Assembly (NCBI GenBank): GCA_035709005.1
Contig: DASTFB010000087.1
Coordinates: 292,507 to 356,506, forward strand
Origin: Candidatus Methylomirabilota bacterium
GTDB taxonomy: Bacteria; Methylomirabilota; Methylomirabilia; Rokubacteriales; CSP1-6
DNA length: 64,000 nt
Reading direction: 5' to 3'
Under the pieces are notes generated by a model, which saw only the letters and a program-made list of their open reading frames with translations, did no database searches and was not told the origin of the DNA. A program made the translations under genes and the position numbers. Positions 58,449 through 60,395 of this stretch are shown one piece after another. Each line of letters opens with the position of its first letter. The first letter of the stretch is position 1.

Positions 58449-58994
58449 ATGCGAAGCACACGGTGGATCGCGGCGCTCCTGGTGGCCGCATCACTGACTG
58501 TCGCGGGCCCGGCCGTCGGCCTCGAAGTGGGCCAGAAAGCGCCCGACTTCACGTTGCCCGCCCCCGGGGGCAAGAACGTGAAGCTGAGCGACTTGCTGGG
58601 CAAGGGCCCCGTGGTGGTCTACACCTTCATCCAGGCCTTCACCGCGCCCTGAACCAAGGAGATCATGGACTTCGACGCGGCCCTGCCGCAGTTCGAGGCC
58701 ATGGGCGCCCAGGTCGTGGGCGTGAGCGCCGACCACGTGAAGACCCTGGAGGCCTTCGTCAAGCAAAATGGCGTCAAGCACGTGCTGCTGGCGGACTTCC
58801 GACGCCAGATGCTCCCGGCGTGGGACGCGATGGTGACCGATGAGAAGCACCCGATCTACCGCTACGCCAAGCGGGCGTATTTCGTGCTCGACCGCAACGG
58901 CGTGGTCAAGTTCTCGAAGGTCATGCAGAACCCGCTGGACCTGCTCCAGGCCGAGGAGGTCCTGGCGGCCGTGCGCGAGGCGGCCAAGTCGTGA
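58449..58994 (+). CDS. Selenocysteine peroxiredoxin, exported (UGA at 58650 read as Sec)
   Basis: 181 residues if the UGA at 58650-58652 is decoded as Sec68. The N-terminus is a signal peptide (about 1-24); the AhpC/TSA fold follows (VGQKAPDFTLPAP; VVVYTFIQAFTAPU; TKEIMDFDAALPQFE; VVGVSADHVKTLEAF; AYFVLDRNGVVKFSKV). The UGA falls exactly at the peroxidatic residue of the PxxxT(S)xxC motif, and the frame continues as perfect peroxiredoxin. The protein contains no Cys at all, so it would be a 1-Sec enzyme reduced by a partner. A hairpin lies 20-44 nt after the UGA. The start has GAGGAGG upstream. Without recoding the product would be an inactive 67-residue peptide. Confidence 0.88.
58672..58696 (+). 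promoter_or_regulatory. SECIS-like hairpin in the peroxiredoxin gene
   Basis: Starting 20 nt after the UGA, TCGA pairs with TCGA at the base and GCGGC pairs with GCCGC above (58677-58681 / 58685-58689) around a CCU loop. Position fits bacterial SECIS elements, which lie directly downstream of the UGA inside the coding region. The fold was judged by eye only. Confidence 0.45.
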
Positions 58995-59542
58995 GGCCCC
59001 TGGGCGCGGTGGCGGTCATCCTGACTGTCCTGCTCGGGGTGGCCGCCGCCGGCCCGAACTTCTCGGCCGCGGGGCTCCAGCCCTATCGGCCGCCCAAGGC
59101 GGCACCGGAATTCGCCCTGCCCGATCTGGAAGGTCGGACACGTACCCTGGCCGAGCTCCGTGGAAAGGTGGTCCTGCTCTTCTTCTGGGCCACCTGGTGA
59201 CCGACCTGCCGGGAGGAGTTGCCTCCCCTGCAGGCCCTCTACCGCGAGTACCGCGACCGCGGCTTCGAGCTGCTCCTGATCACCTTCCGGGAAAGCCCCG
59301 ATCTGGTCAGGCGGACTGCGCGAGAGCGCGGCTACACGGCGCCGGTGCTGCTCGATCGGAGCGGGCAAGTCGCCGGCGAGCGCTACGGGGTCTTCGGACC
59401 ACCCACGATGTACCTCGTCGACCGACAGGGCCGGTTGCTCGCCCGCGGCGTAGGCCCCCACGACTGGTCTGGACCAGCGGCTCGCGCCCTGATCAGCGAC
59501 CTGCTGGGGCCTCCGTCGTCGGCCAGGCCGCCCGGCCGCTGA
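58991..59542 (+). CDS. Selenocysteine TlpA-like thioredoxin, exported (UGA at 59198 read as Sec)
   Basis: 183 residues with Sec70. A signal peptide or anchor (about 1-22) precedes a TlpA/ResA-like thioredoxin fold: APEFALPDLEGRTRTLAEL, GKVVLLFFWATW-U-PTC-REELPPLQ, FELLLITFRE, VAGERYGVFGPPTMYLVD with the cis-Pro. The UGA replaces the first Cys of the CxxC motif, giving UPTC; the resolving Cys73 is kept. The GTG start overlaps the peroxiredoxin stop (GTGA), so the two genes are translationally coupled. Likely role: periplasmic relay that reduces the Sec peroxiredoxin. A 6-bp hairpin follows the UGA. Confidence 0.88.
59211..59227 (+). promoter_or_regulatory. SECIS-like hairpin in the TlpA-like gene
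   Basis: GGGAGG (59211-59216) and CCTCCC (59222-59227) form a perfect 6-bp stem with loop AGUUG, starting 11 nt after the UGA. A GU in the apical loop is typical of elements recognised by SelB. Confidence 0.55.
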
Positions 59543-59549
59543 GGCCGCC

Positions 59550-60395
59550 TCAAATGCCGAACAGGGCCCAGGTCGCGCGCAGGAGCCACATCGACAGCAG
59601 GAACCCGCCGGCGACCGCGAGGCTCACGCCGCCGACCAGCCGCACGCGCGCCTGAAACGCCTCGGACGCGGCCGCGCCGTGATCGCCACGCACGGCCAGG
59701 CTCCCGGCCGCGGCCAGCGGGACTACCAGCCCCAGACCATATGCGGCCAGCGCCGCGGCGCCCAGCCAGGCGCTCTGGCGAGCGGCGACCCAGCCGATCA
59801 CGATCGCGTACGCGGAAAGCGGGCTGAAGATCGCCATGGTCGCGCCGAAGGTCAGCGCGATGATGAGCGCCCGCCGCCAGGCGCTGGACGTCAGCGGGCG
59901 AGCGGCCAGTGGGGCGATGCGGGGAAGGAGCGGACGCGTGAGACCGAGCTCACCGAGGGCGACGGCCAGCGCGAGCAGGCCAACCACGGTGAGCGCAGAG
60001 GCCGCGATCGCCTCGCGCGCCCAGGGCGTGGTAACCCTGGCGGCGACGGCCGCTCCCGCCCAGGCCACGGCGGCCCCGAACAGGGCGAGCACCAGCACCA
60101 GAGCGCCCGTGAACACGCCCAGCGTCGCCACCCACCGTCTCTTGCCGTTCGCCTCCTGAACCAGGGGCGCGATCGTGAAGATCATCGGCGTCCATCAGGG
60201 CACACATATCCGGCTCACGCCCGAGACGAAGGCCAGCAGAACGACGGCCCAGGCGCCCGCCAGCGGCATGCTGGGATCGACGAACAGTGTGATGAACCCC
60301 TCGTACGCCGCCTTGAAGCCGGGCCAGTTCCAGGCCAGTCCCAGGACACCGCCCACCAGCACCGAGAGCGCGAAGACCGTGGCGCGAGAGCGCAT
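59550..60395 (-). CDS. Selenocysteine CcdA-like membrane reductase (UGA at 60197-60195 read as Sec)
   Basis: 281 residues with Sec67, minus strand. ATG 60395 follows GAGGGAGG. Membrane segments surround GVSRICVPU-WTPMIFTIAPLV, so the redox motif C64-V-P-U67 lies where DsbD/CcdA-type proteins carry a conserved Cys before a Pro-Met. About seven more hydrophobic segments follow (LVLVLALFGAAVAWAGAAV; ALTVVGLLALAVAL; FGATMAIFSPLSAYAIVIGW). The second conserved Cys of CcdA is not evident (IFSPLS). It would pass electrons from cytoplasmic thioredoxin across the membrane. It converges on the TlpA-like gene with 7 nt between stops. Without recoding the frame splits into two non-functional pieces. Confidence 0.82.
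60150..60169 (-). promoter_or_regulatory. SECIS-like hairpin in the CcdA-like gene
   Basis: On the minus strand, 26-45 nt after the UGA, CGCC-CCTG and CAGG-A-GGCG pair over 8 bp with a single bulged A and loop GUU. The geometry (short stem, bulge, GU loop) is the most SECIS-like of the three. Confidence 0.6.

What the first reader, a model, noticed from the sequence alone, without database searches (positions are those of the whole stretch)
58449..60395. Three adjacent selenoprotein genes forming a putative envelope redox module
Peroxiredoxin, TlpA-like thioredoxin and CcdA-like membrane protein each carry exactly one in-frame UGA, and in each it sits at the redox-active position (TAPU, UPTC, CVPU). 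The reading frames continue as normal family sequence after the UGA, and each UGA is followed within 11-26 nt by a hairpin. Three independent nonsense mutations at exactly these positions are very unlikely. Family knowledge suggests an electron path: cytoplasmic thioredoxin, CcdA-like protein, TlpA-like relay, peroxiredoxin and peroxide. A whole chain built on selenocysteine would be unusual, and automatic gene callers would truncate or split all three genes.
Basis: partly seen in the sequence, partly recalled or inferred. Interest (0 to 1): 0.93.

Follow-up and report, generated by a model that had tools for sequence, protein, structure and literature searches.

The report
Selenium-based envelope peroxide-reducing relay
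An uncultured bacterium, very likely a Rokubacterium, carries three neighbouring genes whose UGA stop codons sit exactly at the redox-active sites and are predicted to be read as the selenium amino acid selenocysteine, giving a peroxide-destroying enzyme, a thioredoxin-like partner and a membrane protein that would likely feed them electrons; the membrane protein is in no selenoprotein family of the catalogue that was checked.

Summary
In detail: three genes each have one in-frame UGA at a redox-active position (58650, 59198, 60197). The genome has tRNA-Sec, selA, selB and a UGA-containing selD, all over curated cut-offs. The UGA is conserved in 30 of 30 aligned peroxiredoxin loci, 30 of 30 TlpA loci and 6 of 6 CcdA-like genes. 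Codon positions behave as coding on both sides. Synonymous change collapses just after the UGA (TlpA 0.04 against 0.38-0.43; CcdA-like 0.05 against 0.37-0.49), as SECIS elements would cause. Selenocysteine decoding is near certain in silico but not shown on protein. Corrections: the CcdA-like gene is convergent with the other two, not in their operon, and is in 6 of 95 phylum genomes, against 41 of 95 for the peroxiredoxin. It is the novel part: absent from the part read of a 119-family catalogue, no relative covering the site in two protein searches, and its only chalcogens form CVPU in helix 1, while the helix-4 Cys of canonical CcdA is gone. The electron relay is inferred, by analogy with Caulobacter ScsB-TlpA-PprX.

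The parts
58449..58994 (+). Peroxiredoxin gene with N-terminal hydrophobic (export-type) segment; Sec68 at the peroxidatic position; no Cys
   Evidence: Translation; Pfam AhpC-TSA 3.2e-30; Sec68 aligns with the peroxidatic Cys of solved BCP-type peroxiredoxins
58650..58652 (+). In-frame UGA of the peroxiredoxin (Sec68)
   Evidence: TGA in 30 of 30 aligned loci; 49 of 50 phylum matches contain one TGA
58667..58701 (+). First conserved hairpin after the peroxiredoxin UGA (helices 1 and 2 of alignment A1)
   Evidence: three helices together 95.6% of cells paired, at most 47.4% when slid; the simple bSECIS loop rule is not met in the window gene
58705..58723 (+). Second conserved hairpin, loop GGUCG, 59 nt after the UGA; possible SelB site (inferred)
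   Evidence: helix 3, 99.5% of cells paired, 5 of 7 pairs never vary
58991..59542 (+). TlpA/ResA-like thioredoxin gene, GTG start overlapping the peroxiredoxin stop; Sec70-Pro-Thr-Cys73
   Evidence: Translation; Pfam AhpC-TSA 2.8e-26 and Redoxin 1.1e-21; matches ResA and TlpA structures
59198..59200 (+). In-frame UGA of the TlpA-like gene (Sec70)
   Evidence: TGA in 30 of 30 aligned loci
59211..59227 (+). SECIS-like hairpin, loop AGUUG, 16 nt between UGA and loop
   Evidence: In 30 of 30, all cells paired, synonymous change 0.04 in codons +4 to +10
59550..60395 (-). CcdA-like membrane protein gene; Cys64-Val-Pro-Sec67 are its only chalcogens
   Evidence: Translation; Pfam DsbD_TM 4.5e-8, 33.1 bits against cut-off 27.1
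60195..60197 (-). In-frame UGA of the CcdA-like gene (Sec67)
   Evidence: TGA in 6 of 6 genes found in 95 phylum genomes
60150..60169 (-). SECIS-like hairpin with one bulged A, loop GUU, 33 nt between UGA and loop
   Evidence: Same in 6 of 6; synonymous change 0.054 in codons +1 to +15

Best explanation
A peroxiredoxin, a TlpA-like thioredoxin and a CcdA-like membrane protein each carry a UGA at the redox-active site that is predicted to encode selenocysteine, and together they would likely form an envelope relay that passes electrons from the cytoplasm across the inner membrane to reduce peroxides. Shown by sequence: the three UGA, their conservation, coding on both sides of them, RNA-level constraint after them, and the decoding genes in the same genome. 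Inferred step 1: SelB with tRNA-Sec reads the three UGA. Inferred step 2: the peroxiredoxin, probably exported, attacks peroxide with Sec68; having no Cys to resolve itself, it is re-reduced by the neighbouring TlpA-like protein through Sec70/Cys73. Inferred step 3: the TlpA-like protein is re-reduced by the CcdA-like protein, in which the pair Cys64/Sec67 within helix 1 stands in for the helix 1 and helix 4 Cys pair of canonical CcdA, fed by cytoplasmic thioredoxin. Genomes without the CcdA-like selenoprotein presumably use a canonical CcdA. My odds: Sec decoding about 0.97; TlpA-like protein reducing the peroxiredoxin about 0.75; CcdA-like protein feeding this pair about 0.6. The confidence below is for the whole chain.
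For: Decoding genes over cut-offs in the same genome: tRNA-Sec, selB, selA, selD. UGA at the site in 30 of 30, 30 of 30 and 6 of 6. Natural Cys at the same sites in relatives of the peroxiredoxin and TlpA. Coding pattern continues through the UGA. Synonymous change falls to 0.04 (TlpA), 0.054 (CcdA-like) and 0.23 (peroxiredoxin) after the UGA against 0.36-0.49 elsewhere. Peroxiredoxin without Cys in 28 of 30, TlpA gene next to it in 27 of 30 loci. CcdA-like gene close to and convergent with the pair in 5 of 6 genomes. Cys precedent ScsB-TlpA-PprX (passage in PMC5403849).
Against: No protein data. The CcdA-like gene is on the other strand and in 6 of 95 genomes only; a canonical CcdA with a Cys TlpA is encoded elsewhere. 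It lacks the second Cys that CcdA chemistry is thought to need (PMC7329351 passage). The window peroxiredoxin hairpin fails the simple bSECIS loop rule. 7 of 41 peroxiredoxin genomes show no tRNA-Sec and 4 of those 7 no selB, among them G087, which has all three genes. The peroxiredoxin lacks the Pro of the PxxxTxxC motif (motif from PMC13188914).
Confidence: 0.55

Rival explanations
1. The peroxiredoxin and the TlpA-like selenoprotein work as a pair fed by the canonical two-Cys CcdA, and the CcdA-like selenoprotein serves another partner in the envelope.
For: Peroxiredoxin in 41 of 95 genomes, CcdA-like selenoprotein in 6 of 95; a DsbD_TM protein of canonical type in 82 of 95 genomes at E 1e-6 and in the window genome; the gene is convergent; in G040, G041 and G086 a 5'-nucleotidase-like gene lies between, in line with the CcdA-like gene.
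Against: Close convergent placement in 5 of 6 genomes, directly so in the window genome and G083; all three are Sec proteins.
Confidence: 0.27
2. The CcdA-like protein is not an electron carrier but moves or binds a metal or a chalcogen with its CxxU motif.
For: Only one chalcogen pair, in one helix; the catalogue lists other CxxU-type membrane transport selenoproteins (putative mercuric transport protein, C/SxxU); Pfam score modest, 33.1 bits.
Against: PUxxP lines up with PCxxP of CcdA without gaps; DsbD_TM over the gathering score; neighbours are redox proteins.
Confidence: 0.12
3. The UGA are nonsense mutations, assembly errors, or codons read as Trp or by leaky read-through.
For: 8 of 16 database peroxiredoxins that span the site show Trp, which a gene caller set to code 4 would give; genomes are metagenome bins; the pair of G083 is broken.
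Against: Same site in 30, 30 and 6 homologues from many genomes; natural counterparts have Cys; UGA ends the same genes; constraint after the UGA acts on RNA; full decoding set.
Confidence: 0.03

Closest known systems
Caulobacter ScsB-TlpA-PprX envelope peroxide pathway (Cho et al. 2012, not held; seen as passages of PMC5403849)
   Same: Membrane electron transporter, TlpA-type thioredoxin and periplasmic peroxiredoxin as the proposed order
   Different: Cys-based there; here UGA at all three redox sites, and a CcdA-size transporter instead of DsbD-like ScsB. ScsB, TlpA and PprX sequences of Caulobacter were not compared here
CcdA (Pfam DsbD_TM; PDB 5vkv)
   Different: Extra N-terminal helix, Sec in place of the helix-1 Cys, extra Cys three residues earlier, helix-4 Cys absent
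Sec-containing peroxiredoxins (TxxU; PrxU NF040737)
   Same: Sec at the peroxidatic site, TxxU (for the catalogue)
   Different: 39.1 bits against the PrxU cut-off of 270; no Cys at all in the window protein; I in place of the Pro of PxxxTxxU
UxxC thiol-disulfide isomerase-like and TlpA-type selenoproteins of the catalogue
   Same: TlpA/ResA-like fold with UxxC
   Different: 61 bits against 300 for the UGC-type TlpA model NF041054; paired with a Sec peroxiredoxin
TsoB, rhodanese/DsbD fusion-like selenoprotein (NF045694)
   Same: A DsbD-type membrane domain with Sec
   Different: The CcdA-like protein has no NCBIfam match at E 0.001, only DsbD_TM in Pfam, and CVPU rather than UxxxxU

Membership tests
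Bacterial selenoprotein genes | Sec decoding set in the genome (selA, selB, selD, tRNA-Sec) | tested here: met
   all over curated cut-offs
Bacterial selenoprotein genes | In-frame UGA at a site that is Cys in homologues, conserved among relatives | tested here: met
   Conserved. Cys in relatives: peroxiredoxin and TlpA; for the CcdA-like protein only by alignment to canonical CcdA, no close Cys relative was found
Bacterial selenoprotein genes | Selenocysteine present in the protein | not testable with these tools
   Needs mass spectrometry or 75Se labelling
[quoted passage not shown] PMC13188914 passage) | TlpA-like gene | tested here: met
   Loop AGUUG, 16 nt, 6-bp stem in the window gene; 30 of 30 loci; MFE -11.1
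bSECIS consensus | CcdA-like gene | tested here: met
   Loop GUU, 33 nt, 4-bp upper stem then a bulged A; MFE -12.0 in the window gene
bSECIS consensus | Peroxiredoxin gene | tested here: not met
   No such hairpin in the window gene; 17 of 30 loci have one under -3 kcal/mol. A conserved two-hairpin structure is there, with a GGUCG loop 59 nt away
Peroxiredoxin (AhpC-TSA) | Profile match and peroxidatic position | tested here: met
Peroxiredoxin (AhpC-TSA) | Pro of the PxxxTxxC/U motif | tested here: not met
   Ile at that position in the window protein; Thr and Sec kept
TlpA/ResA-like thioredoxins | Fold profile and CxxC-type active site | tested here: met
   UxxC
CcdA (DsbD_TM) | Profile match over the gathering score | tested here: met
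   33.1 bits against 27.1
CcdA (DsbD_TM) | Redox Cys in both helix 1 and helix 4 | tested here: not met
   Sec in helix 1; no Cys at the helix-4 motif. 31 of 31 canonical CcdA examined have both
CcdA (DsbD_TM) | CcdA fold | tested here: inconclusive
   5vkv second by Z (8.9), but no Foldseek match at E 0.001, and the Sec family alone gave a poor model
TsoB | Match to NF045694 | tested here: not met
   No NCBIfam match at E 0.001
PrxU | Score over the NF040737 cut-off | tested here: not met
   39.1 against 270 bits

The most novel reading that the evidence does not exclude
A trans-envelope relay in which every hop from the membrane to peroxide goes through selenium, driven by an unlisted, selenocysteine-only family of CcdA-type electron transporters that has dropped the two-helix Cys pair of canonical CcdA and works with a single CxxU selenenylsulfide in one helix; and a peroxiredoxin whose UGA is read through a two-hairpin SECIS, the first hairpin folding the GGU-loop hairpin back into range.
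Probability: 0.3. Interest if true: 0.82.

Novelty: new variant of a known kind. Interest (0 to 1): 0.66.

Why it matters
If true, a membrane electron transporter joins the selenoproteins, and the rule that CcdA works with one Cys in each of two helices gains an exception that can be tested at the bench (a CxxU pair in one helix). It would also show that an uncultured lineage invests selenium in its envelope's defence against peroxide, and that public protein sets hold this family as fragments cut at the UGA (92 of 101 relatives start at the same Met just after it), some of them named CcdA.

Full report
Where it is. The window lies on contig C87 of a 4.6 Mb genome bin of 134 contigs, 95% complete. 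A same-family genome, G041, has a contig of the same length (41276 bases) and gene as the record Candidatus Rokuibacteriota AR17 (counted once), and named database relatives are Methylomirabilota or Rokubacteria. So this is very likely a Rokubacterium.

The three genes. The peroxiredoxin, 58449-58994 (+), and the TlpA-like gene, 58991-59542 (+), overlap. The CcdA-like gene, 59550-60395 (-), converges on them. Each has one internal UGA, at TAPU, WUPTC and CVPU, and each ends in UGA. Pfam: AhpC-TSA 3.2e-30; AhpC-TSA 2.8e-26 with Redoxin 1.1e-21; DsbD_TM 4.5e-8, 33.1 bits against 27.1. Sec68 lines up with the peroxidatic Cys of solved BCP-type peroxiredoxins, Sec70 with the first Cys of a solved WCPxC protein. 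The first two reach no NCBIfam cut-off (14 and 12 families listed, all below), the third has no NCBIfam match.

Decoding genes. tRNA-Sec (68.9 bits, cut-off 47; ARAGORN agrees) with selA on the same 9-kb contig, selB, and a selD with one in-frame TGA whose place I did not check. In the phylum 79 of 95 genomes have tRNA-Sec over the cut-off. Against: 7 of the 41 genomes with the peroxiredoxin show none, also when searched again, and 4 of those 7 have no selB at E 1e-40, among them G087, rated 100% complete. In G040, G041, G083 and G086 tRNA-Sec and selB lie about 3 kb apart on one contig, so one missing contig could explain such cases.

Conservation of the UGA. Peroxiredoxin: 50 matches at E 1e-40 in 41 of 95 genomes; 49 contain one TGA, one none. 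In the 30 loci fetched of these 50 it is at the exact site in 30 of 30. For TlpA, the 30 loci fetched, one for each of the best genomes of 86 with a match, also give 30 of 30. CcdA-like: 6 of 95 genomes at E 1e-10, 6 of 6 with TGA. Natural counterparts: a second peroxiredoxin of G087 has Cys there while the TlpA gene next to it has TGA; in G036, G040 and G041 a second peroxiredoxin type has TGA while the TlpA-type gene next to it has Cys. Of the 120 best listed of 780 peroxiredoxin relatives, 16 span the site: 4 Cys, 8 Trp, 4 other. Trp is what a code-4 gene caller would print for TGA; that reading is mine.

Coding through the UGA. Differences at codon positions 1, 2, 3 against the window gene: peroxiredoxin 0.24/0.16/0.40 before and 0.24/0.19/0.40 after the UGA; TlpA 0.23/0.19/0.51 and 0.29/0.23/0.52; CcdA-like 0.27/0.22/0.45 and 0.20/0.15/0.43. 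Gene callers cut the genes: 92 of 101 CcdA-like relatives start MIF.I; 103 of 104 peroxiredoxin fragments among the 120 start 1-11 residues after the UGA.

RNA constraint. Among codon pairs for the same amino acid the share that differ is 0.04 in TlpA codons +4 to +10 (0.38 upstream, 0.43 at +26 to +60); 0.054 in CcdA-like codons +1 to +15 (0.38, 0.37 and 0.49 in three other stretches); 0.23 in peroxiredoxin codons +1 to +25 (0.36 and 0.42) (compared by offset from the UGA). The TlpA hairpin (loop AGUU[G/A], 16 nt from the UGA) is in 30 of 30. Its Leu codon is TTG or TTA in 30 of 30, against 18 of 839 Leu codons elsewhere in these genes, and its Pro codon CCT in 30 of 30, against 18 of 611 (the counts of 59 were printed before that script stopped). 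Relatedness is not removed, so these are not independent events. The CcdA-like hairpin (loop GUU, 33 nt) is the same in 6 of 6, its Val codon GTT in 6 of 6 against 29 of 685. Both fit the published bSECIS rules (PMC13188914, passage). Folding is lower than in synonymous shuffles: mean z -3.1 for TlpA, -2.5 for the peroxiredoxin, -2.2 to -2.7 for the CcdA-like hairpin alone. The peroxiredoxin has a conserved two-hairpin structure, 95.6% of cells paired against at most 47.4% when slid, 19 double changes against 5.8 in shuffles. But the window gene has no hairpin that meets the loop rule, and the second hairpin, loop GGUCG, is 59 nt from the UGA. With the first hairpin (35 nt) folded, 24 unfolded nt remain. 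A two-hairpin SECIS is my inference.

How it would work. In the part examined the peroxiredoxin has no Cys in 28 of 30 homologues (two have one far upstream), the TlpA-like protein only Sec and the Cys three residues on in 29 of 30. A peroxiredoxin with a lone Sec needs an outside reductant, and the TlpA gene adjoins it downstream in 27 of 30 loci. In the other three no TlpA gene lies within the 1.5 kb held. A Cys-based precedent is Caulobacter ScsB to TlpA to PprX (PMC5403849, passage; primary paper not held). In the CcdA-like protein Cys64 and Sec67 are the only chalcogens, and the helix-4 motif has no Cys in the 37 rows of A3. Canonical CcdA uses a Cys pair, with TM1 and TM4 moving between the two sides (PMC7329351, passage); 31 of 31 examined here (30 best loci and the genome's own) have PCxxP in both places. 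By eye, AFVSGVSRICVPUWTP matches AFSAGLFSFLSPCVLP of the genome's own CcdA without gaps, and GATMAIF stands where it has GWTPCVG. So I infer a CxxU pair within helix 1. Structure evidence is weak.

One module or not. Against: the CcdA-like gene is convergent, rare, and a canonical CcdA lies beside a Cys TlpA elsewhere in this genome. For: in 5 of 6 genomes it lies near the pair on one contig and converges on it, directly in the window genome and G083, across 1.7 to 2.5 kb with a 5'-nucleotidase-like gene in G040, G041 and G086; in G087 the two parts are on two contigs, near their ends. In G083 the pair is degenerate or misassembled.

Novelty. Of a 2026 review (PMC13188914) I read sections 6 and 10 whole and section 7, with its table of 119 families, in two of three parts, the table complete. 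It lists Sec peroxiredoxins and UxxC thioredoxin-like proteins but no CcdA type besides the rhodanese/DsbD fusion TsoB. No relative covering the CcdA-like site came up: 0 of 101 and 0 of 119 hits cover more than 75% of the query (each scored only about 8000 best candidates). The review says a Methylomirabilota bin was predicted to hold 63 selenoproteins; that paper is not held, so the family may be among its candidates. The peroxiredoxin and the TlpA-like protein are new members of known kinds; the CcdA-like protein and the all-Sec set are a new variant.

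Noticed in passing
60446-60520 (-): A tRNA-Arg (anticodon CCT) gene just upstream of the CcdA-like gene and on the same strand.
   Followed up: no
45269-54230 (-): Open frames that look like a tad/Flp-type pilus cluster (CpaB, secretin, TadA ATPase, TadB/C), recognised by eye from the translations, not searched.
   Followed up: no
54674-56356 (-) and 57000-58091 (+), approximate: Frames that look like a sigma-54 activator and a response regulator with an AraC-type end, by eye.
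   Followed up: no
L010:4844-6400 and the matching places in G040, G041, G086, G087: A 5'-nucleotidase/UshA-like gene follows the CcdA-like gene in relatives but is missing in the window; its UGA looks like a plain stop.
   Followed up: partly
G083:C24 (L080:7141-9300): The peroxiredoxin-TlpA pair beside the CcdA-like gene is degenerate or misassembled: the peroxiredoxin frame breaks and its later part runs into the end of the TlpA gene.
   Followed up: partly
L103 (G000:C87:195382-196026): A canonical two-Cys CcdA beside a TlpA-type gene, about 5 kb from the UGA-containing selD of the same contig.
   Followed up: partly
L100, L101, L102: A second peroxiredoxin type with UGA, next to a Cys TlpA-type gene that precedes it.
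   Followed up: partly
L050, L051, L053, L058, L059, L064, L065, L071, L072: Stand-alone UGA TlpA-like genes without a peroxiredoxin in the 1.5 kb held; partner not looked for.
   Followed up: no
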